Positions 1,632 through 25,766 of a DNA stretch of 27,515 nucleotides are shown piece after piece (the stretch's first letter is position 1; every line of letters starts with the position of its first letter). Origin of the DNA: a virus; IMG/VR virus record IMGVR_UViG_3300021197_000984, positions 1 to 27,515 of that record, one strand, 5' to 3'. Below the pieces are notes generated by a model. The model worked only from the letters and a program-made list of their open reading frames with translations. It did no database searches and had not been told where the DNA came from. The translations under genes were made by a program, and so were the position numbers.

Positions 1632-2462
1632 CTATTTTTCTTGAATATTTGAGCTGTAGGCTACGCAATAAACATAGTCTTCGTCATACTGAGTAGGGTA
1701 TATCCCATAAGTGGTCTTAGTGTTTTTGGCGTTTTGCTTTACCTGCGCTATGACCTTCTTATGGATTCCCCCCTGCTCTCTCAACTTTTTCTCATTGATA
1801 GCATAATAATATACTTTTTCTCGGACGTTGTCAAGGTCAAAAAACATTTTTTCTTCCCCCGTATCAAAGTCAACGAGCCCATAAGACATTATGCGGCTAA
1901 CATCATGAGGGGGCGAGATATTATCCATTATGCTATCACTATGGGAGAGCACATTGACCATATGCATAGTAGGGACAAGCAACTCATTCAGCTTGTCATA
2001 AAAACCGATTATGGGCAAATCGCCAAGAATTTCCTCTAGACGAGTATTGTCAGCCAAAACGACCTTTTTAAACACCCCAGAGCGGGAATACTCTTGAAAA
2101 ACGTTAAAAGTGACCCTTTGCTGCATCCGAGCTGTCTCACCAAGCAACTCAGGGTCAGAAAAGATGTATAGTATATGAATATTGCATTTTTTTATCTGTT
2201 CTAAAATGCGCAGAGATGCTCCACTAATAGCGCCACATCCAGACACCGCAAATAAGACATCGCCGTCAATATTCTTAAGAAATCTTTTTAGACTACCAAC
2301 GGAGTCTTCATACTCCTCTGGTGTCGGAGCTGTCTTAAGTCCGTAAGTCCGGGGAGTTCTCTTGAGCCCCTGGTCCATCTTGTAAACCTCATATTGAGGA
2401 TATTGAGCAAACCTATCGGCGATGGCGCAACCTGCCTGCCCAAGTCCAATTATTGTTTCCAT
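1632..2462 (-). CDS. Tubulin/FtsZ-like GTPase-fold protein (predicted)
   Basis: I assign this 276-aa protein to the tubulin/FtsZ superfamily from motif order, not from a database match. Residues 4-15 (IIGLGQAGCAIA) fit the first strand and glycine loop (FtsZ GVGGAGGNA). Residues 71-82 (FAVSGCGAISGA) occupy the place of the signature GGGTGTG loop but are degenerate, keeping Gly75, Gly77 and Gly81. Then come a strand, an E-x-x-x-R segment (109-115), VVLADNTRL (134-142) like the FtsZ IPNxxL strand, and YDKLNELLVP (155-164) like the following helix. HDVSRIM (186-192) matches the T7-loop segment with its catalytic Asp (FtsZ FADVxxxM). About 75 residues of C-terminal domain follow. Phage relatives (PhuZ of jumbo phages, TubZ of Bacillus prophages) build filaments that position or segregate DNA. 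It overlaps the polymerase gene by 13 bases and precedes gp32, so a role in DNA organisation is plausible. GTP binding is uncertain given the altered signature loop. Confidence 0.6.
   Translation of the reverse strand: METIIGLGQAGCAIADRFAQYPQYEVYKMDQGLKRTPRTYGLKTAPTPEEYEDSVGSLKRFLKNIDGDVLFAVSGCGAISGASLRILEQIKKCNIHILYIFSDPELLGETARMQQRVTFNVFQEYSRSGVFKKVVLADNTRLEEILGDLPIIGFYDKLNELLVPTMHMVNVLSHSDSIMDNISPPHDVSRIMSYGLVDFDTGEEKMFFDLDNVREKVYYYAINEKKLREQGGIHKKVIAQVKQNAKNTKTTYGIYPTQYDEDYVYCVAYSSNIQEK
1806..1834 (-). promoter_or_regulatory. Possible internal sigma-70-type promoter in the tubulin-like gene
   Basis: TTGACA (1829-1834), 17-base spacer, TATTAT (1806-1811) on the minus strand, 11 of 12 consensus bases. 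It lies within the coding sequence about 270 bases upstream of gp32 and could add to gp32 expression. A chance match is possible, although the same spacing recurs at three other sites in this block. Confidence 0.4.
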
Positions 2463-3640
2463 GATCTCATATCCCCATAGCTCTTGCCATATTGTACATT
2501 AACACCGAACTTTCCTAAAGCAGTATTTGAGAAATGTTCAACTAGAGAGTTGATCATGGATGGCATTTCAACGTTTGTTACGTCTAGTACAACCTCATCA
2601 TGCACGCAGAATGCGACAAATGACTCCTTGCCCTGAAGATACTTGTCCAGCTTGATCATTTGGCGCAGCACAATATCAGAACAAGTGCTCTGAATAAGGT
2701 AGCTCATAGCATGGTGAGCGTCCGCAGGAATAGTTCTACCAAATGGGTTGCTGACGGCGCCGTCATACCAATACTTCTCCATCACGGCACCCTTATCATA
2801 GACGCCCTCGGGCAAACGATCTTGTGATTTAGGATTGTATAGCCAAGCAAAGAACCTTTCTTTAACTTCCTCGCGAGTGCCATCACCTTTATATACATTT
2901 TGCCGGTTCCACTCGTGAACATCAAAATCAGGCTGGTCCATATCAGACAGGGCTAGAAAAGTTCGCAATTCAGCACCGTTAAAATCAAGTGATACGAGCC
3001 AATCATTAGTCGGGGTGACAACTTTTCGGAACTTCTTGTCCATCGTGAGGATTGGAAAGCTGTTTTTCTTAGTCGTAAGGCGCCCAGTCTTTGTTCCAAA
3101 GATGTTATAATCGCACGACAGTGAAATCTGACTTAACTTTTGCGTAAAGTTGCGTGCTCGCTTCTCATGCATAATATCTCGGAGTGCCCAAGGGTCAATC
3201 TGAATCTTGCGGTGCTTTATATCGTGCAAAACTTTCGTCAAATCCACCAAAAAGTCGTAATTTTCGGGTTTCTCGTGGGTTTTCAAGACGTGCTCTGTAA
3301 TCTTATTTCTCATCTCGCAATATTCTCGCAAGAACCGTTCATTTACGAGGTCAAAAAAGCAGTTTTCAGTAAGGTCCACTTTAGCCGCCGTAAAGGCACG
3401 TAGGAACGCCTTCATTCTTCCGTTAATGGTTTCCCACTCCTGAGCGAGATGGACCGGACAGGCGTCTTCTAGAGCCTTCTGGGCGTATAGGAATGCATAC
3501 TCCACATTCGTCCTGTCTCGGAGGAACGCAGAGTAGTTCCAAGTGCGAGTTAGGTCGTCAGGAATGGTGTCAAAGTGCAATTCATTGTTGCAATAGACCC
3601 CGACACACTCTTGTTTGTCGTCAAGTGTTTGAAATATCAT
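2450..3640 (-). CDS. Family A DNA polymerase, polymerase domain only
   Basis: This replicative-type polymerase of the PolA/T7 gp5 family has all three catalytic motifs. Motif A is LDFNGAELR with metal-binding Asp219 and the ribose-excluding Glu224. Motif B starts at Arg256 (REEVKERFFAWLYN), aligning to T7 RDNAKTFIYGFLYG, with Lys260 as general acid and Phe264 where T7 has Tyr526. Motif C is CVHDEV with His347, Asp348 and Glu349. KTGRLTT (184-190) is the primer-template segment that normally precedes motif A. At 396 aa it corresponds to the thumb-palm-fingers part; no 3'-5' exonuclease motifs are visible in the roughly 130-residue N-terminal part. A Phe at the Tyr526 position normally favours dNTP over ddNTP. 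The ATG overlaps the stop of the preceding virion gene by one base (TAATG). T4 itself uses a family B polymerase (gp43), so this is a replacement or a second polymerase. Confidence 0.9.
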   Translation of the reverse strand: MIFQTLDDKQECVGVYCNNELHFDTIPDDLTRTWNYSAFLRDRTNVEYAFLYAQKALEDACPVHLAQEWETINGRMKAFLRAFTAAKVDLTENCFFDLVNERFLREYCEMRNKITEHVLKTHEKPENYDFLVDLTKVLHDIKHRKIQIDPWALRDIMHEKRARNFTQKLSQISLSCDYNIFGTKTGRLTTKKNSFPILTMDKKFRKVVTPTNDWLVSLDFNGAELRTFLALSDMDQPDFDVHEWNRQNVYKGDGTREEVKERFFAWLYNPKSQDRLPEGVYDKGAVMEKYWYDGAVSNPFGRTIPADAHHAMSYLIQSTCSDIVLRQMIKLDKYLQGKESFVAFCVHDEVVLDVTNVEMPSMINSLVEHFSNTALGKFGVNVQYGKSYGDMRSWKQ

Positions 3641-10025: not shown

Positions 10026-11675
10026 TTAGGTGGTTCCTAGAACTCTTCGGTCAATGTGAGGTATAATAGCCTCACCAAGTTGGCGGTTGTCAAGCATTAC
10101 CTGAACAACAAGCTTTCTGTCGCCGCCGCCAGCACCACCACCAGCCATCGCTTGCATAATCGGTCCGCCAGGCTTGGCGGCAACAATATCGTCGGCACTG
10201 TTAATGGGTGTTACTTTGCCGTTAGAGATTACGCCATCATTTATGCCCTGTGTGACTGCAGCGCCAACACCCAATGCGGAAACTGCCAAAGAGGCGCCCC
10301 CTGTAGGGATTGCGGCGACGACTCCTCCAATTGCGAGCAAAGTACCTATGCCGCCTGGCACCATATCAATGAACTTAACAAACATATCAATTACAAAGCC
10401 AAATAAATCCGCTAATGGCTTGACTGCAACCGCCAACTGTAGGAATACAAACCTCAACTGAGTGAAGGAGTCCGTTGCCTTCATCGCCATTTCTTCCATT
10501 TGTTCAACGCTAATTCCAGTATCACCAATCATCTCGGCAACCTGACCCTGTTCGGTTCCGAAGAGCTTGGCTGCCGTCGCAAGGTCGCTAATGCCAGCAG
10601 CGTTGGCGACTGCGATTCTTTGGAATCGTGTCATACTCTCAAAGTCTTGTCCAGAAAGGGCAAGTCGTTCTCGCAGAATCTCAACTCGCTCTGCCTCGCT
10701 AGCCATGAGAAGTTCTGTACCACTGACCAAATCAGTTCCTAGGACGGCGTTCAGTCTACCTGCGACCTCAGCTGAGCCTCGGAAAGTATCTAGCTGGCTT
10801 CCGAAAGCGGCTGTCAGTTCCTCAATGGAGGTGCCGGTCTCGCGAGCTGTGATCTGAAGGTTCCTGAATACATCCACCGCTTCATCACCGAACTTGGCTA
10901 GTTGCGGAAGTGCCCTATTGAACTCCTGTATCATTTCTTGTGGTGGACGCCCAAGTGCCACGGCAAGACCCACCATTTCTCTTTGAGTTGTCATAGCCTC
11001 AGCTGTTGTCATACCGAAAGCCATTGTAAGCGTGTTAAGAGATTCGGCAGTGGTGCCGGCGTTTACACCGACTTTCCCCATGGTGGCAGCCTGCACCGTC
11101 AGGGTATCGCGAAGATCTTGAGAGACAAACGCAAACTGTGAGAATCCGGCTCGTAATGCGGTCGTGGTGTCCAACATCTCTTTCATACCAATTGCCAACT
11201 CAGTGTTGGTAAGCGCAAGGTTTGTGAACGCTTTGCCGGCATCACTAACATCGCCTGTAAGCGCCACATAGGATGCACGAAGTTTATCTGTCTCTATCGC
11301 AGCTGCGCCGGTGATCTTTACGATGTCTCTGAATACGTCTGCTACGTTTCGTCCACTTTGCGTGATATTCTTGAGCAGCCCATCAACTGCGCCCATGGCT
11401 GTAGAGTTTGCGTTGAGACCTGATACGACTTCGGAGAGGGCGCTAGCTAGGTCGCGGACACCTGTAGCCTGCTCCTTTTGAAGATTGTTTATCTGCTGTT
11501 GGACTCTGAGGCGCTGGTCTTCGTCCTCCGTCATCTTTTCAAGCACTTGTAGCTCGGCGACACGAAGTGCCCTTCTAGCCTCCATAGCCTCTCTTGACTT
11601 GTCTGCTGCATCAAGCAGCTTTACTTCTATTTCAAGAAGTTGTTCCGCCCTCTGTAGCTCTTCCAAGGTTGCCAT
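10026..11675 (-). CDS. 29: Tail tape measure protein (T4 gp29 role)
   Basis: This protein sets tail length and occupies the tube lumen. It starts with a long charged coiled coil (about 1-75: EELQRAEQLLEIEVKLLD and on). Then comes an Ala/Thr-rich helical body with tape-measure-like segments (LRASYVALTGDVSDAGKAF, MTTAEAMTTQREMVGLAV). A hydrophobic stretch follows at about 400-480, including IGTLLAIGGVVAAIPTGGAS, and the tail has a Gly-rich loop (MAGGGAGGGDRK) before a final beta segment. At 549 aa it is a little shorter than T4 gp29 (590 aa). At about 1.5 angstrom per residue this predicts a tail near 80 nm (inference). It lies directly after the gp26/gp51 chaperone pair and a terminator, the normal position for tape measure genes. 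The start has a clear SD (CAGGAG). Confidence 0.88.
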   Translation of the reverse strand: MATLEELQRAEQLLEIEVKLLDAADKSREAMEARRALRVAELQVLEKMTEDEDQRLRVQQQINNLQKEQATGVRDLASALSEVVSGLNANSTAMGAVDGLLKNITQSGRNVADVFRDIVKITGAAAIETDKLRASYVALTGDVSDAGKAFTNLALTNTELAIGMKEMLDTTTALRAGFSQFAFVSQDLRDTLTVQAATMGKVGVNAGTTAESLNTLTMAFGMTTAEAMTTQREMVGLAVALGRPPQEMIQEFNRALPQLAKFGDEAVDVFRNLQITARETGTSIEELTAAFGSQLDTFRGSAEVAGRLNAVLGTDLVSGTELLMASEAERVEILRERLALSGQDFESMTRFQRIAVANAAGISDLATAAKLFGTEQGQVAEMIGDTGISVEQMEEMAMKATDSFTQLRFVFLQLAVAVKPLADLFGFVIDMFVKFIDMVPGGIGTLLAIGGVVAAIPTGGASLAVSALGVGAAVTQGINDGVISNGKVTPINSADDIVAAKPGGPIMQAMAGGGAGGGDRKLVVQVMLDNRQLGEAIIPHIDRRVLGTT

Positions 11676-11744: not shown

Positions 11745-11954
11745 TTAGGAGAGTCTAGGGGGCATTCCCCCCTTTGGCTTGGAAGCTTTTTCCATAGCTT
11801 CGTTTTCTTTTTCTTTTTGCTTGATCAGCCGCTCAAGGAACCAATTCCTGAGACCAACCGGAAGATTATAGGCTTGCTGGAAATCCCATCTGCCGTGATA
11901 CATAAGCCCAAAGAACTGCTCATATATCTGCTCTATATAGTCATCGGTTAGGCC
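11745..11954 (-). CDS. 51: gp51-like tail assembly segment, expressed by frameshift from gp26
   Basis: This 69-residue segment begins GLTDDYIEQIYEQFFGLMYH and ends in a basic, Gly/Pro-rich tail. It resembles the small helical T4 gp51 baseplate-hub assembly factor and the T part of lambda G-T. It is open in the frame reached by +1 (or -2) slippage at a run of seven T in the last codons of gp26. Between the slip and its first internal Met there is no ATG, GTG or TTG start with an SD. Upstream in this frame the translation (to 12053) is only an out-of-frame shadow of gp26. It is therefore best read as the C-terminal part of a gp26-gp51 fusion of about 348 aa. In lambda, P2 and Mu the same arrangement gives two tail-assembly chaperones. 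A free gp51 from an atypical start is the alternative. Confidence 0.65.
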   Translation of the reverse strand, partial: GLTDDYIEQIYEQFFGLMYHGRWDFQQAYNLPVGLRNWFLERLIKQKEKENEAMEKASKPKGGMPPRLS

Positions 11955-12792
11955 AAAAAAAGTTTGCCGTAATCGGCACCTCCATGTCCTGCGTATGACC
12001 GCATGAGGAGCACTCGTAGTGCTGAGTAAGATCAAACGTGGGGTTAAGGGCACGATAAGCCTTACGCAAATGATAAGAATCAGCTGCGGGCATCATATCC
12101 ACGAACCTATAAATGATATCCCTGTTCTCGTCATCATTAAGCGAGACGATAAACTTTGAGATCTGGGAGGTAAGGGTCTTCTCCAGCAAGGAGTTTCTCT
12201 TATTCTTCTGGACAGCTGAAGTAATGGTGTTCTCATCAGCCCCTGTGAGGAGACGAATCTCAGCTGTAACCTTGGTAACGGGGAGCGTGACCAAGAAAGT
12301 TGTATTGTTTGTCTCGGTAATATCTAAGTTACCCCAATCATTGCCATGATTGACTGTCCCTTCACGAAGATTAAAGCCGTAATCAGCCTTTACAGAGCAC
12401 GCAGGGCACGCGACCTCTGTCTCATATACCTCTCCATAGGCGGTTGCGCGAGCAGCCACCAGGATGGCACTACGGTCGCCTGAGAGCAATTCACTAGGCT
12501 TGATAGTCTTGTCAACGAGAAGGTTCTGGAGCAGCTTCTCAAGGGCAACACCCTTACGGAGCAACGTCTGGCTAGTGAGGATATCCTCATCCTTAGCCGT
12601 CATGAAGCGGATCTCAACCGTGTCTTGTCCGTGCAGTGGATGATCCGCTGCATAGAAGCGACCTTGGCTGGGAAGTTCAACAAATTCTGTTGGGGACACA
12701 AAGTCCAGTACGGACTTAGTGGGAGCTGGCGTTGTCTTCGCCTTTGTTTTCTTAGGCGCGCTCGCCGTGCGCCCTTGAGTATTTCTCGGCAA
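11941..12792 (-). CDS. 26: T4 gp26-like baseplate/tail assembly protein
   Basis: This 283-aa protein matches the T4 gp26 baseplate family in layout: a basic N-terminus (1-27), then VLDFVSPTEFVELPSQGRFY, helical regions, and two Cys pairs. The pairs are Cys129/Cys132 (ACPAC) and Cys261/Cys264 (ECSSCGH), which should bind one zinc ion. It ends in the short conserved-looking ITANFFWPNR. The start is TTG at 12792: an in-frame TGA lies just upstream, a strong SD (GAGGTGA) stands at the right distance, and no in-frame ATG occurs before residue 64. Seven T run through FF-W five codons before the stop, where part of the ribosomes probably shift to gp51. Position between tube and tape measure is that of lambda gpG and P2 gpE, so a tape-measure chaperone role is inferred. 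A near-consensus promoter lies directly upstream. Confidence 0.82.
   Translation of the reverse strand: MPRNTQGRTASAPKKTKAKTTPAPTKSVLDFVSPTEFVELPSQGRFYAADHPLHGQDTVEIRFMTAKDEDILTSQTLLRKGVALEKLLQNLLVDKTIKPSELLSGDRSAILVAARATAYGEVYETEVACPACSVKADYGFNLREGTVNHGNDWGNLDITETNNTTFLVTLPVTKVTAEIRLLTGADENTITSAVQKNKRNSLLEKTLTSQISKFIVSLNDDENRDIIYRFVDMMPAADSYHLRKAYRALNPTFDLTQHYECSSCGHTQDMEVPITANFFWPNR
11954..11967 (-). promoter_or_regulatory. Probable programmed ribosomal frameshift site (gp26 to gp51)
   Basis: The minus-strand sequence reads GCA AAC TTT TTT TGG in the gp26 frame, with seven T at 11955-11961. The gp51 frame continues GGC CTA ACC after the T run. A +1 shift (skip one T) or a -2 slip of the Phe tRNA on the T run both lead into it; a -1 slip does not. 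The gp26 stop TGA lies at 11941-11943, 13 bases past the run. Confidence 0.6.
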
Positions 12793-12814: not shown

Positions 12815-12843
12815 ATTATACCTTATTGGTTCTTATATGTTAA
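12815..12843 (-). promoter_or_regulatory. Near-consensus sigma-70-type promoter for gp26
   Basis: TTAACA (12838-12843), 17-base spacer, TATAAT (12815-12820) on the minus strand, 11 of 12 bases. The -35 overlaps the gp19 stop codon. The predicted start is close to the gp26 SD, giving a short leader of roughly 15 bases. Confidence 0.65.
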
Positions 12844-13409
12844 CTAGTAAATAGACGACGCTCAACTAGCTCACCGGGATCACGACCGGGGATCTCAGGA
12901 ATCTCATAGGCAGCCCAGTCATAGCGGAACTTGACTGTGATATCTGAAAGATCTTCGCTTCCATAGCTATATTCGTTGAACTGAACATCGGTGATGAACG
13001 GGTTGTTGAGTGTCCACTGCTCTAGGATATTTCCGTCCTCATCAATACCTCTGATGATGACGCTGCCTAGTTGGGCTGTAGCGTTGCCCTTGCCAATTGT
13101 GGTTGTGGCATCAGGCTCGTTCAAGTTGCCGGGGACGTTGTACCCAGCGCGACGAAGGATGGACAAAAGGTTGCCTGTAGCGTCTGGGTTAACAGGGTCT
13201 ACAAGAGCAACAGTAACCTCGCTCCAATTCACTTTCCCGGGGTAGTAGAAAGTGTGGTTCAAGAAGGCATGCTGGGTTGCCCCGATTGTCACACCTGGCT
13301 TGGTGGCACTCTTGGCATACCATGTGGCGCCCTGCTCCATGCCGGCGAGGGTGACCAAAAATCTAAACTGCCTCTTAGGCTCAACTTTTCCAGAACTCCA
13401 GAATGGCAT
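12840..13409 (-). CDS. 19: Tail tube protein gp19
   Basis: This is the subunit of the inner tail tube, stacked as hexamers inside the sheath. The 189-aa sequence begins MPFWSSGKVEPKRQFRFLVT and continues through YAKSATKPGV and FYYPGKVNWSEVTVALVDP, a pattern shared by gp19-type tubes of T4-like phages and by Hcp-like tubes (tube beta-barrel with a K-P-G and P-G-x-x-W-x-x-V strand). The late part (ITDVQFNEYSYGSEDLSDI) fits the outer strands. Length is similar to T4 gp19 (163 aa) with a slightly longer C-terminus. It directly follows the sheath gene with a 48-base gap and has a strong SD (AAGGAG). Confidence 0.9.
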   Translation of the reverse strand: MPFWSSGKVEPKRQFRFLVTLAGMEQGATWYAKSATKPGVTIGATQHAFLNHTFYYPGKVNWSEVTVALVDPVNPDATGNLLSILRRAGYNVPGNLNEPDATTTIGKGNATAQLGSVIIRGIDEDGNILEQWTLNNPFITDVQFNEYSYGSEDLSDITVKFRYDWAAYEIPEIPGRDPGELVERRLFTS

Positions 13410-13457: not shown

Positions 13458-16412
13458 TTAGTCGTCAAATGAAGCGCCAGTCCTTGTAACAATAAAGTCT
13501 AGTGCAATAAACTCAATGGCACGAGCTGGCTTGAGGTAGATCTTCGCGTATAGGATATTCCTATCAATCAGATCATCTGTGGTCGTTGTGCTGTCAAGGA
13601 TGACGCGGAAGTCGGTAAGACCAAAGCGTGCCTTGACATCAGCCAAGAAGGGGTTCACGGCAGACGTGAAGCGGTCCCAGGTTGTCTGAACGTTGGGATC
13701 AAACAAGATTGTGTTTGCAATCGTAGAGATTTCCTTCTTGATGAAGATGAGCAAGCGACGAACGTTGATACGGTCTAGCGCAGAGCGTGTGACCTGAAGC
13801 GTCTTTTGCCCGAAGATTACGATTCCCTCGTTGGGGAACGTAGCAATGGGGTTGATGTTCATGCTGTAAAGCGTGTCGCGGTCCTTAGAGGTTAGTCGCA
13901 TCTTGACACCCGTTACAGGAACTCCTGCAGCGCCGTTGGATAGTCCACCTCGGACGAAGCCAGCGGGGGCAAACCACAGCTCGCTTCTAGCCTGGGAAGA
14001 GCCGAAGGTACCGATGGCGGCAACTGACGGCGGTACATCAACCACACGGTTAGTGTTCGCGTCTCGGATCTGGACCCAGGGGAAGAAGGTGCAGCCGTAA
14101 CTTGAGTTGATAGAGCGAGCACGAAGCGTCGTGGCAGCTTGTGTCACATCGGGGCGACGTGCTACAGCACTCGCGGTATCCTCAGTTCCGGCAGGCGTGT
14201 AGGCGTACTGGATATCAACCACTGCTAGAGCGTCTGCACGCTCCTCACAAGTTGTGATAAGCTTGTCAGTAACCGCAGGGGTCCAGATGCCGGGGATGGA
14301 CATTAGGTTTGTCTCAACGAACTCTGGGTCTGCGACAGTATCAATGGACCTACGGAGTGTGTTAATGCCGTAGTTGTTTAGCTCAGTCTGGCTAGATTGG
14401 TTCAAGTAACTGTTTCTGAATGGCTCTTTCTCAACAATGTTGAGTCCGTCAAATCCACCGAACATTGGAGCGGTGAACTTGTTGTATCCGTTATCAAGCA
14501 GTGAGCGTGAACCGGAAGCAGCTGTCCAAGAACCGCCATCCTTACGAGAGCCAGAGAGGTAATATGCCTCTTCTCGGTTGCCATTTCTGAAGCGAATGTT
14601 GTCCAAGGTAAAACTAAAGCTGTTCTCCGTGTTTCCACCGGGAACAAATGTCTGGGTCGCGATAGGAGCGGGGAGCGGTCTCACCATGTCAATATAGCTT
14701 GGATCAAAGATGATACTGTTGGCTGCTTTGGTTGTCTGAATTCCGAAGTAAGCGTCGGTAGGGTTGATGCCACCATCACTTGCGCTAAGTCGGTTACGAA
14801 TAGCGGGGAAGTTGTAAGATGCCGTGAAGCTCGTTCCGGGGGCTGGAGCGCAAACGGCACGGTGCGTAAAGGCGAACAGGTTGTTACCCTTTGTCTGCTT
14901 GACGCCGCCAGGGTGAGCAATAGAGCCAGATCCCAGAACTGGAATTTGAGCAAGGGAGGCGGCACCGACAACTGTATTACCAACGGCGTTCGGTGCTGGG
15001 AATGTGGATCCGGAAAGAACTGTGAAGCCCTTGAGGCGCGGTGGTCCAAAGTATCCGAATGGAACGGCAGAAGCATCAGCGCCACCGTTGGCGACTGCGG
15101 CGTCTACTACCACACGCACATAGGCTGATTGGTTGTCGTAATCACCGTACTGCCTCAAGCGGCGTTCGGTAGCAGACCACTCCACGAACTTGTCGCCAAT
15201 CTTCTTTGCAACATAGTCCGGTGAGTTCGGGTTAAGGTTACAGAGGTCATAGCGCTCAATGACTATTGGGGCGTTATCTGTATCGCGCACAGAGCGAAGA
15301 ACAACTGAGAAGGTTCCGTAAGGGTTGATCTCGGGATAATCAGCTGCACGAATCTCTTCAATGGAGATCTTAACGTTACGCTGAATCCAACTACCGTGCT
15401 CTAGAGATACAAGCTTGAACAATCTTACTGTGTTATCAAGGAAGAAGTTGGTGTTGATTCCAAGGTCCTGCGACCGGAAGTACGGGGTCTCAGCATTCTG
15501 GAAGCCCTGGTTGTGGTCGTCAAAATCAAGAAGGCTAGTGGAGCCAGAGGCTAGAGCCAAGATAACTCCAAAGACGTTTCCACTCTCGCCAGTGTTGGTC
15601 ACAGTGCGACGAACCATCTGGTCGTATGACTCACCGAGCCAGTAGCGCTTGTAGGCATTGGTACTTGAATCAACAATGGTGCTATTTGTCTGGGAAGCAT
15701 TGGTGTTGAAGACCTTGCGGATGTACTTGTCGCTGTTCTCGTCAAAGTTGAAGCAGACTTTCTCGGAGGTTGCCTCGCCAGTGTTAAAGATTACAGCCGC
15801 AAACTCCTGGCTGGCACCACGGGACTGAAAGTAAGTTCCGGCAGATGCGGTGCCGAAGCCAGAGGGGGCACCAACAAAGTTTCCACTGAGGACGACTGAA
15901 GCACTTTTTTGAAGATACCAGACAGCTGCAAGCGTTCCACTATCTGTGGGACTCGGGCTGGCCGCAAGAGAAGCTGAGTTAACGAGGAACAGTCCATAGG
16001 CGCCGCCGTTCTCTGAAAGGTCTCTGTCCGGGGCGCCGGTGGTGTCCCAGCCTGCCAGACCGGTAGCCGCTTCGGCGTTCGTATGCTGCGTTCCAAGAAG
16101 GCGCATCATCGTAAGGGGGGCTTGACCAGAGTTTAGCCATGCCTTAGCAGCGTATGCTCCATAGGTGGGACCGTCAAAGTCGCCTGAGCGCCAGTTGTCT
16201 CCACCCTCGGCTCCGGGGTCAGGTGACCCGAAGACATTTACGAACTCTTCGTATGATCTCACCAAGACGGGACGCATACCAGGACCCTTGCGCGCACGAC
16301 CAAAAATAGTAGGTCCGATGATACGGGGATCGGCTGGTAGCTGAGATTGGTCAATCTCTCTTGTGAACACGCCAGGTGAAATGAACTTAAATTTTCTAGC
16401 TCCACTTGCCAT
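13458..16412 (-). CDS. 18: Contractile tail sheath protein gp18 (long form)
   Basis: This is the subunit of the contractile sheath around the tail tube. The N-terminus (FISPGVFTREIDQSQLPADP) is the classic sheath opening that donates a strand to the neighbouring subunit. It continues IIGPTIFGRARKGPG and YEEFVNVFG. The C-terminal region from about residue 690 is also typical: TVADPEFVETNLMSIPGI, then ADALAVVDI, GIVIFGQKTLQ, RINVRRLLIFIKKEI and the end VTRTGASFDD. It is 984 aa against 659 in T4, and the extra length lies in the middle (roughly 100-600), a Ser/Gly/Asn-rich strand region that likely forms surface domains. It has a strong SD (AAGGAG) and a T4-late-promoter-like motif about 40 bases upstream. 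Confidence 0.93.
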   Translation of the reverse strand: MASGARKFKFISPGVFTREIDQSQLPADPRIIGPTIFGRARKGPGMRPVLVRSYEEFVNVFGSPDPGAEGGDNWRSGDFDGPTYGAYAAKAWLNSGQAPLTMMRLLGTQHTNAEAATGLAGWDTTGAPDRDLSENGGAYGLFLVNSASLAASPSPTDSGTLAAVWYLQKSASVVLSGNFVGAPSGFGTASAGTYFQSRGASQEFAAVIFNTGEATSEKVCFNFDENSDKYIRKVFNTNASQTNSTIVDSSTNAYKRYWLGESYDQMVRRTVTNTGESGNVFGVILALASGSTSLLDFDDHNQGFQNAETPYFRSQDLGINTNFFLDNTVRLFKLVSLEHGSWIQRNVKISIEEIRAADYPEINPYGTFSVVLRSVRDTDNAPIVIERYDLCNLNPNSPDYVAKKIGDKFVEWSATERRLRQYGDYDNQSAYVRVVVDAAVANGGADASAVPFGYFGPPRLKGFTVLSGSTFPAPNAVGNTVVGAASLAQIPVLGSGSIAHPGGVKQTKGNNLFAFTHRAVCAPAPGTSFTASYNFPAIRNRLSASDGGINPTDAYFGIQTTKAANSIIFDPSYIDMVRPLPAPIATQTFVPGGNTENSFSFTLDNIRFRNGNREEAYYLSGSRKDGGSWTAASGSRSLLDNGYNKFTAPMFGGFDGLNIVEKEPFRNSYLNQSSQTELNNYGINTLRRSIDTVADPEFVETNLMSIPGIWTPAVTDKLITTCEERADALAVVDIQYAYTPAGTEDTASAVARRPDVTQAATTLRARSINSSYGCTFFPWVQIRDANTNRVVDVPPSVAAIGTFGSSQARSELWFAPAGFVRGGLSNGAAGVPVTGVKMRLTSKDRDTLYSMNINPIATFPNEGIVIFGQKTLQVTRSALDRINVRRLLIFIKKEISTIANTILFDPNVQTTWDRFTSAVNPFLADVKARFGLTDFRVILDSTTTTDDLIDRNILYAKIYLKPARAIEFIALDFIVTRTGASFDD

Positions 16413-23816: not shown

Positions 23817-25766
23817 TTACCAGATTAGGTAGTTGCTGCCGTCAAACATAAGGTTAGCAGCACCATAGGCGGAACCTAGTGAAATACTAGCAGCTCCATC
23901 AATGGTCTCAGAACCTGCAGTCGCGATAGTAACAGCGTTACTGGCGTGACCACCTTGCTTGATGACGAAGACCTTACCAGTAGGCATGCTGCTGGGTAGG
24001 GTCACGGTGACGGCACCACCAGAGGTGTCAACCTTCACGAGGAAGTGACCCTGGGTAAGGGTAGCGTCGGCGCTGATGGAGTGTAGACGACCGGAAAGAC
24101 CGGCAGCCGCATAGAGATCAGCATCAAATTTGAATGCCTGGTCTCCGTGGCTCCAAGTCATGGACTTGTCAGCACCATCAATCTTTAGACCAGCACCATC
24201 AGAAGCTGAAGAGTTGGCAGAGCCACTCGCAACCTGAATGGTTAGGTCCTCAACCTTTAGCTCAGTGGCGCTAACGGTGTCAACACTACCGACAACCTCA
24301 AGGCTACCAGCAATTCTGACGTGGGAAGCGGCGCCACCAATTGTTAGAGTGTTTGCACCGAGGCTAGCAGCGACAGAGGCGTTAGCAGCGGTGAAGTCAA
24401 GACCGGTTAGACCGGAGAAAGCAGTTGCGCTACCACCGAGGGAAACGCTTGTGCTACCAACAGTAAGAGCACTGTTCACAAGCTTGGCGTTCGCGATGGA
24501 ACCGGCGAGCATTGCGTTGGTGATACCAGCAGCCTTGACGCGGACGGCGTCAGAGCTAAGCTCAATGGAGCTGTCATCAACACCAACAGCGAGGACGCCA
24601 CTAGAAGCAGCGAGACCGTTACCAGCGAGACCAGTAGCAACATCGTCGTTCATCATTGCGTCGGTAATACCAGCAGCCTTCACGCGCACGGCGTCAGAGT
24701 CAATCTCAAGAGAGCTATCGTCAACCTTGACGCTAAGCTTACCAGAGGAAGCCTCAATTCCGTCACCGTCAGCGAAAGCTGCGGCGAGATCGGCAATGGA
24801 CTCTTTCTTGGTGCTGTTGTCGGTTGCGTCAATCATGACAAAAGAGTCGGCGGCGCGGTCAACAGCAGCGGCGCTTAGCTCGTTGGCATCAAGAGCTAGA
24901 ACACCTGAAGCGGCAGAAAGACCAACACCAGCGAGACCGGTGGCAACGTCGTCGTTCATCATTGCGTCAGTAACCTTGGTGGCACCGATTGAGGCAACAC
25001 CAGCGGCGAGGGTGACATCACCACTCATTGAGACCCAAGCGAGGTCAGTGCCGTCAGCTTGGAGGAACTGGTGAGCAGAACCAAGAGCTAGAGCTGCGGG
25101 GTCACCAGAAGCGTCACCATAGATGAACTTGCCTCGTGCGAGACCAGCCATCTTGGCTAGGGTAACACCATTGTCCTTGAGACGCACAGTGTCAGAGTTA
25201 ATTTCAATACCAGTGTCGTCAACCTTGACGCTGAGCTTACCGGAGGAAGCCTCAATGCCATCGCCATCGGCGAAAGCAGCAGCTAGATCAGCAATGCTTT
25301 CTTTCTTGGTGCTTCCGTCAGTCGCGTCAATAAGAACGAATGAATCGTTCGCGCGGTCAACGGCAGCGGCACTTAGCTCGTTGGCGTCAAGAGCAAGAAC
25401 GCCAGAGGCAGCGGAAAGACCGTTGCCAGCAGCGGCAGCCATAAGGTCAGCGATGCTTTCCTTCTTGGAACCGTTGTCTGTAGCGTCAATTAAGGCAATG
25501 CTATCGTTCGCGACGTCAACAGCAGCTGCGCTTAGCTCGTTGAGGTCAAGAGCAACAGAGACGGCAGCACCGAGGTCAACCTCGCCACCACCTGAAAGAC
25601 CGTTACCAGCGGTAACTGTAACGGAGTCGTTAACCAACTTAGCGTTGGCAATAGAGCCAGCGAGGTCTGCGTTGTCAACAGAGCCTGCTGCGAGATCAAT
25701 ATCACCAGCGGAGATATCAAGAGTACCGGCAGTCTTCATCGTACCGATAATTGTTTTATAAGCCAT
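23817..25766 (-). CDS. Repeat-containing phage fibre protein, 649 aa
   Basis: A long, thin appendage, probably trimeric, for host contact or head decoration. It has an N-terminal segment (1-50, with DNADLAGSIANAKLVNDSVT), a repeat region (about 55-430) and a C-terminal tip (about 565-649). The repeat unit of about 86 residues runs NGLSAASGVLALDANELSAA, then ND-x-FVLIDATD, KKESIADL, DGDGIEASSGKLSVKVDD, and SDxVR. Two nearly full copies (115-200 and 281-366) and partial ones (55-113, 382-416) are present, with a GITDAMMNDDVATGLAG spacer (twice). The region KVEDLTIQVASGSANSSASD (504-523) is a fold seen in many marine phage fibres. The tip (FLVKVDTSGGAVTVTLPSSM, then IKQGG and SETIDG) matches the 141-aa protein. 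Composition is Ala/Asp/Ser-rich and nearly Cys-free. Tail versus head fibre cannot be decided. Confidence 0.75.
   Translation of the reverse strand: MAYKTIIGTMKTAGTLDISAGDIDLAAGSVDNADLAGSIANAKLVNDSVTVTAGNGLSGGGEVDLGAAVSVALDLNELSAAAVDVANDSIALIDATDNGSKKESIADLMAAAAGNGLSAASGVLALDANELSAAAVDRANDSFVLIDATDGSTKKESIADLAAAFADGDGIEASSGKLSVKVDDTGIEINSDTVRLKDNGVTLAKMAGLARGKFIYGDASGDPAALALGSAHQFLQADGTDLAWVSMSGDVTLAAGVASIGATKVTDAMMNDDVATGLAGVGLSAASGVLALDANELSAAAVDRAADSFVMIDATDNSTKKESIADLAAAFADGDGIEASSGKLSVKVDDSSLEIDSDAVRVKAAGITDAMMNDDVATGLAGNGLAASSGVLAVGVDDSSIELSSDAVRVKAAGITNAMLAGSIANAKLVNSALTVGSTSVSLGGSATAFSGLTGLDFTAANASVAASLGANTLTIGGAASHVRIAGSLEVVGSVDTVSATELKVEDLTIQVASGSANSSASDGAGLKIDGADKSMTWSHGDQAFKFDADLYAAAGLSGRLHSISADATLTQGHFLVKVDTSGGAVTVTLPSSMPTGKVFVIKQGGHASNAVTIATAGSETIDGAASISLGSAYGAANLMFDGSNYLIW
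24519..24623 (-). repeat. Partial fibre repeat, copy 4
   Basis: Codes for residues about 382-416 of the 649-aa fibre (NGLAASSGVLAVGVDDSS, then SDAVRVKAAGIT), a shortened unit lacking the DATD/KKESIADL half. Confidence 0.6.
24669..24926 (-). repeat. Fibre protein repeat, copy 3
   Basis: Codes for residues 281-366 of the 649-aa fibre (about 258 bases). It matches the copy at 25167-25424, about 500 bases away, almost residue for residue, with many silent differences. Confidence 0.75.
25167..25424 (-). repeat. Fibre protein repeat, copy 2
   Basis: Codes for residues 115-200 of the 649-aa fibre. A shorter related copy at 25428-25604 (residues 55-113) shares LNELSAAAVD, NDSIALIDATD and KKESIADL. 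Confidence 0.75.

What the first reader, a model, noticed from the sequence alone, without database searches (positions are those of the whole stretch)
11745..12792. Likely programmed +1/-2 frameshift joining gp26 to gp51
gp51 has no usable start codon: its frame opens into gp26 out of frame, and its recognisable sequence begins exactly at a run of seven T located five codons before the gp26 stop. Ribosomes that skip one T or slip back two would make a 348-aa fusion. Lambda G-GT, P2 E-E' and Mu make the same kind of tail chaperone pair, mostly by -1 (Mu by -2). In T4, 26 and 51 are separate genes, so this would tie the T4 pair to the universal frameshifted chaperones.
Basis: partly seen in the sequence, partly recalled or inferred. 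Interest (0 to 1): 0.78.

Follow-up and report, generated by a model that had tools for sequence, protein, structure and literature searches.

The report
Plus-one frameshift in phage tail chaperone
In a large group of mostly marine T4-type viruses, ribosomes very probably skip one letter at a conserved TTT-T-GG site to make the long form of a tail-building chaperone; the trick is known from other phages, but here it runs forward instead of backward and carries its own conserved signal.

Summary
On the minus strand the gp26-like ORF (12792-11941) is followed, in the +1 frame, by a gp51-type domain with no start codon of its own before its conserved core. The frames meet at AAC TTT TTT TGG CCT. 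This layout recurs in 252 loci (123 dereplicated), and codon-position variability switches frame exactly at the site. Variants without a T run (TTC TTT TGG, TTT CTT TGG) exclude sequencing indels and transcript slippage; the TTC form argues against -2. I read it as a programmed +1 ribosomal frameshift on UUU-U / CUU-U giving a 348-aa long chaperone beside the 283-aa short one. T4 gp51 aligns full length with the cyanophage fusion: T4 encodes ready-made what these phages make by shifting. That link is already published (Vladimirov et al. 2022, read only through citing papers). Apparently new: a large +1 clade beside homologues shifting -1 at T_TTT_TTC (55/55), avoidance of the -1 heptamer in the +1 clade (102/102), and a conserved Shine-Dalgarno-like GGAGGTG 20 nt upstream, a spacing fitting neither published rule. 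No experiment was possible.

The parts
11941..12792 (-). gp26-like tail assembly chaperone, short form (TAC-N), 283 aa (TTG start, TGA stop)
   Evidence: PF12322 E=1.8e-14 and phrog_150 E=7.2e-18; AlphaFold model pLDDT 92; structural matches to viral baseplate hub (gp26) proteins, E down to 5e-18; top PDB match HK97 tail assembly chaperone 2OB9, not significant
11745..11954 (-). TAC-C domain read in the +1 frame after the slip (GLTDDYIEQIYEQFFG..., 69 aa plus stop; the skipped T is at 11955)
   Evidence: Conserved in all relatives; profile match to the cyanophage C-domain, prob 95.7, E=1e-8; two relatives hit phrog_634 'baseplate hub assembly catalyst'; predicted three-helix domain, pLDDT 83
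11952..11961 (-). Frameshift site TTT_TTT_T_GGC: P-site codon TTT at 11958-11956, skipped T at 11955, +1 codon GGC at 11954-11952
   Evidence: P-site TTT then TGG in 81/81 first-round loci; CTT TGG or TTC TTT TGG variants elsewhere
11977..11983 (-). Shine-Dalgarno-like GGAGGTG, its GGAGG ending 20 nt 5' of the slip codon
   Evidence: GAG 76:0 over GAA at Glu-8, against 25-52% GAG at other Glu columns; GTG 44/85 at Val-7
10026..11675 (-). Tape measure protein, directly downstream
   Evidence: phrog_167 E=7.4e-5; PF10145 weak, below its cut-off
12840..13409 (-). Tail tube protein, directly upstream
   Evidence: phrog_4542 E=1.8e-19
13458..16412 (-). Tail sheath
   Evidence: phrog_23 E=1.9e-68

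Best explanation
The locus encodes the tail assembly chaperone of a T4-type contractile-tailed phage. Most ribosomes read gp26 to its TGA and make the short form (TAC-N). A minority, with peptidyl-tRNA-Phe on UUU in the P site and UGG waiting in the A site, slip forward one base so that the tRNA re-pairs with UUU and GGC is read next. They then make a 348-aa long form (TAC-NC) with a helical C-terminal domain. By analogy with lambda G/GT, the short form would coat the tape measure protein and the long form would recruit the tail tube protein encoded just upstream. Shown here: the frame relation, its conservation, the site, its synonymous constraint, and the homology. Inferred: that it happens in cells, its efficiency, and the roles of the two products.
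For: 81/81 and then 252 loci keep the +1 register. The codon-position entropy pattern flips from the gp26 phase to the +1 phase exactly at the site: upstream [0.62, 0.45, 1.28], downstream in the +1 frame [0.80, 0.49, 1.39]. Gly-Leu follows the slip in 122 of 123. P-site Phe is TTT 111:0, against about 77% TTT in other Phe columns. Alternative sites are known +1 types: CTT_T, as in prfB, in immuto-like phages; TTT_C in SP-15 and GXN1. 24 of 123 loci have no ATG/GTG/TTG in the +1 frame before the conserved core. Gene order is sheath, tube, gp26, gp51, tape measure. T4 gp51 aligns full length with the cyanophage fusion, prob 97, E=1e-10.
Against: No proteomic or reporter data. No conserved downstream RNA structure was found. 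The upstream SD-like element lies 20 nt away, not the 3 nt known to stimulate +1. In the 7-T form a -2 slip also re-pairs perfectly. 39 of 123 relatives have an ATG six codons after the slip that could in principle start a separate product.
Confidence: 0.88

Rival explanations
1. A programmed -2 frameshift (as in phage Mu) on the seven-T run gives the same second frame with one extra Phe.
For: Same frame; in TTTTTTT, -2 re-pairing of tRNA-Phe is perfect, and an SD-like element far upstream would be expected to pull backwards. CTT TGG could also re-pair at TTC.
Against: TTC TTT TGG variants (9 of 123) keep the frame, but -2 would put tRNA-Phe on UCU with a middle-base mismatch. The commonest substitute for the slip codon TTT is CTT, the classic +1 codon.
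Confidence: 0.07
2. gp51 is translated on its own, from a non-canonical start or by termination-reinitiation at the gp26 stop.
For: 39 of 123 relatives have an ATG six codons after the slip. Two relatives (L260, L265) do have a separate ATG ORF for this domain.
Against: No conserved start position; 24 of 123 have none. Conservation of the +1 reading begins at the slip site, before the gp26 stop.
Confidence: 0.03
3. Slippage by RNA polymerase on the T run, or a sequencing indel, rather than ribosomal shifting.
For: Seven T in most loci.
Against: The run is exactly 7 in 102 of 123 and only 3-4 T in the other 21, with the same frame relation; hundreds of contigs agree.
Confidence: 0.02

Closest known systems
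T4-like tail assembly chaperone genes (Vladimirov, Gautam & Davidson 2022, Virology 566:9-15)
   Same: Same gene pair (PF12322 gp26 and the C-terminal domain of gp51), short and long forms; poly-T sites in TAC-N genes of T4-like phages cited as -1 signals (PMC12846349), and a short gene plus a longer fused gene in some T4-like phages (PMC10885494)
   Different: The window clade shifts +1, not -1, at YTT_TGG. The paper itself is not held, so whether it mentions +1 members could not be checked
Lambda G/GT, P2 E/E' and Mu tail chaperone frameshifts
   Same: Position between tube and tape measure genes; short and frameshift-extended products
   Different: Lambda and P2 shift -1, Mu -2; no sequence relation tested; HK97 gp13 (2OB9) is only a weak, non-significant fold match
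HSTV-2 myovirus tail frameshift (predicted +1; PMC5009743)
   Same: +1 direction in a myovirus tail chaperone
   Different: Archaeal virus; single case stated as very likely +1; homology not tested here
prfB (RF2) autoregulatory +1 frameshift
   Same: CUU_U / UUU_U slip site and an upstream SD-like element
   Different: A-site is a sense codon (UGG) here, not UGA; SD spacing 20 nt instead of 3 nt; no regulatory loop implied

Membership tests
T4-type gp26/gp51 tail assembly chaperone pair | TAC-N belongs to the PF12322 / gp26 family | tested here: met
   PF12322 54.4 bits over cut-off 24.5; phrog_150
T4-type gp26/gp51 tail assembly chaperone pair | Second frame encodes the gp51 C-terminal domain | tested here: met
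   hhalign with the cyanophage gp51 C-domain prob 95.7, E=1e-8; T4 gp51 family against the cyanophage fusion prob 97, E=1e-10. The link to T4 runs through the cyanophages: T4 gp51 directly against the window fusion is weaker (prob 60), and against the window C-domain alone nothing was found
dsDNA phage frameshifted tail chaperones (lambda G/GT type) | Location between tail tube and tape measure genes | tested here: met
   tube 12840-13409, tape measure 10026-11675
[quoted passage not shown]
dsDNA phage frameshifted tail chaperones (lambda G/GT type) | Shared TAC-N fold | tested here: inconclusive
   Best PDB match of 350,542 chains is HK97 TAC 2OB9, but E=2.2, prob 0.33
dsDNA phage frameshifted tail chaperones (lambda G/GT type) | Fusion product made in infected cells at a low fixed ratio | not testable with these tools
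   needs proteomics or a reporter
prfB-type +1 frameshift | SD-like element 3 nt 5' of the slip codon and a stop codon in the A site | tested here: not met
   GGAGG is 20 nt upstream; A-site codon is TGG
-1 slippery heptamer X_XXY_YYZ | T_TTT_TTN at the junction and second ORF in the -1 frame | tested here: not met
   Base before TTTTTT never T (102/102) and second frame +1; the cyanophage homologues do meet it, 55/55

The most novel reading that the evidence does not exclude
The +1 clade uses a class of bacterial recoding signal not yet described: an SD-like GGAGGUGCCG element fixed about 20 nt upstream of a UUU_U slip codon, outside the published 3-nt (+1) and 9-14-nt (-1) windows, together with active avoidance of the -1 heptamer; the chaperone gene switched shift direction during evolution while keeping the fused product.
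Probability: 0.3. Interest if true: 0.68.

Novelty: new variant of a known kind. Interest (0 to 1): 0.5.

Why it matters
It gives a deep natural data set in which one homologous gene is decoded by -1 shifting in some phages, by +1 shifting in others, by a ready-made long gene in T4, and apparently by a separate ORF in two contigs. That makes the rules setting shift direction testable by simple swaps, and it corrects annotations that drop or truncate gp51 in many phage genomes. The upstream SD-like element at a non-standard distance questions the accepted spacing rule.

Tried and rejected
Downstream stem-loop or pseudoknot: RNAalifold on 97 aligned sequences found no structure, and individual folding z-scores averaged -0.3. 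An upstream hairpin around the GGAGGTGCCG...CGGAC region was also not predicted. Independent start codon, transcript slippage and sequencing error: rejected as above. Sequence search of solved structures found nothing. The key 2022 paper is not held. A lead that ten C-domain relatives match PF20546 (DUF6760) was not followed up in genomes that hold that family.

Full report
What is there. The window is a 27.5-kb virus contig whose late genes run on the minus strand. In transcription order these include tail sheath (16412-13458, phrog_23), tail tube (13409-12840, phrog_4542), a gp26-like protein (12792-11941, PF12322), the second frame (to 11745), and the tape measure protein (11675-10026, phrog_167). 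Tube, chaperone pair, tape measure is the classical order for tail assembly chaperones. The junction reads ATG GAG GTG CCG ATT ACG GCA AAC TTT TTT TGG CCT AAC CGA TGA. The second frame, read from GGC, gives GLTDDYIEQIYEQFFGLMYHGRWDFQQAYNLPVGLRNWFLERL... and is +1 to gp26. The only candidate start codons in that frame are deep inside gp26 or after the conserved core.

Is it more than chance. Relatives were fetched from IMG/VR. In the first 81 junctions every one has the +1 frame open across the gp26 stop, P-site TTT, next codon TGG, and Gly-Leu after the slip; the -1 frame closes within 2-38 codons. Extending to immuto-like and LR756508-like relatives gave 252 loci, 123 after dereplication: TTT TTT TGG 102, TTT CTT TGG 11, TTC TTT TGG 9, TTT CTT TAC 1, and GL in 122 of 123. 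Column entropy by codon position has its maximum in the third position of gp26 codons upstream and in the third position of the +1 codons downstream; the switch falls on the slip site. Amino-acid needs alone do not explain the DNA: Phe TTT is 111:0, the Asp codon two before is GAC 76:4 where other Asp columns run about 32% GAC, Glu-8 is GAG 76:0 where others run 25-52%, Val-7 GTG is 44/85 against about 15%, and Pro-6 CCG is 74/121 (the Fisher values, 6e-12 to 3e-31, ignore relatedness and so overstate the evidence).

Direction. The +1 frame can be reached by +1 or -2. In the TTC TTT TGG form a -2 slip would place tRNA-Phe on UCU, while +1 gives a perfect UUU. The commonest substitute for TTT is CTT, the prfB codon, and distant members use TTT followed by C (SP-15, GXN1, LR756508), also plausible +1 sites. 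I put +1 at roughly ten to one over -2. A T run of only 3-4 in 21 of 123 loci removes polymerase slippage and indel errors.

The other direction in homologues. Cyanophage-type relatives from IMG/VR (79 of 80; 55 of 55 dereplicated) carry T TTT TTC and a -1 second frame, as do Vibrio Va3, PA5oct and Atu_ph07; pf16, Melnitz and XacN1 have T TTT TTT. Those cyanophage genes have GAGGN or GAAGGN ending about 9-10 nt before the heptamer, inside the 9-14 nt range that the review PMC5009743 gives for -1 stimulation. In the +1 clade a T before TTTTTT never occurs (0 of 102), and when the preceding base is T the next Phe codon is always TTC (5 of 5), so the -1 heptamer is avoided. On a gp26 tree of 68 proteins the two directions cluster strongly: 3 and 2 label changes against about 20 in shuffles. 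T4 gp26 and one more row are long branches, so the number and order of switches are not settled. Two contigs, L260 and L265, carry the C-domain as a separate ATG-initiated ORF.

T4. Profile comparison shows T4 gp51 aligned over residues 6-245 of 249 with the cyanophage -1 fusion (prob 97, E 1e-10), and the cyanophage C-domain with the window C-domain (prob 95.7, E 1e-8); T4 gp51 directly against the window fusion is weaker (prob 60). So T4 gp26 is the short form and T4 gp51 the ready-made long form. This agrees with Vladimirov, Gautam and Davidson 2022, known here from citing papers: some T4-like phages carry a short gene and a longer fused gene instead of frameshifting (PMC10885494), and poly-T -1 signals exist in TAC-N genes of T4-like phages (PMC12846349). 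My recollection of that abstract, that frameshifting is conserved in several T4-like groups and that T4 uses genes 26 and 51, is memory and not a tool result. The 2016 review had excepted T4 and stated that -1, -2 or +1 are used in different tailed phages, naming HSTV-2 as very likely +1.

Structure. The gp26 model is confident (pLDDT 92). It matches viral baseplate-hub proteins down to E 5e-18. Its first-ranked PDB match is the HK97 tail assembly chaperone 2OB9, but at E 2.2, so this is only suggestive. The C-domain is predicted as three helices.

Open point. GGAGGTG(CCG) lies with the GGAGG ending 20 nt before the slip codon (17 nt before the T run) and is under strong synonymous constraint in the window clade. 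The accepted spacing is 3 nt for +1 and 9-14 nt for -1. It is not a start site for the second frame. I cannot say how it acts. It is absent in immuto-like relatives, so it is not essential to every +1 member.

Verdict. A real and very well conserved programmed +1 frameshift in a T4-type tail chaperone gene; a new variant of a known kind. The evolutionary tie to T4 26/51 is prior art; the clade-wide reversal of direction and the odd upstream element are the parts worth testing.

Noticed in passing
L260:2718-3050; L265:2715-3011: In two immuto-like contigs the TAC-C domain sits in a separate ORF with its own ATG just after the gp26 stop and about 25 extra N-terminal residues; the frameshift seems to have been lost.
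   Followed up: partly
L081:1582-1725 (Synechococcus phage syn9), L375:2022-2195 (S-PM2), L370:2064-2207 (Melnitz): Public gp51 annotations start after the gp26 stop, which misses the upstream part of the -1 frame and hides the fusion.
   Followed up: partly
window 11748-11957 (-) relatives: 10 of 33 C-domain relatives match PF20546 (DUF6760), E down to 6e-5; whether DUF6760 genes elsewhere pair with gp26-like genes by frameshift was not tested.
   Followed up: no
window 2450-3640 (-): 396-aa protein matching the DNA polymerase A palm region, near a gp32-like single-strand binding protein (783-1538); looks short for a complete polymerase.
   Followed up: no
window 23817-25766 (-): 649-aa protein with repeated sequence blocks (DGDGIEASSGKLSVKVDD...) and no Pfam match.
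   Followed up: no
L376-L385: Contigs binned as bacterial or archaeal MAGs (Actinomycetes, WOR-3, Woesearchaeota, Flavobacteriales) carry the same chaperone pair in the +1 register, so they are probably phage or prophage contigs, and some may be mis-binned.
   Followed up: partly
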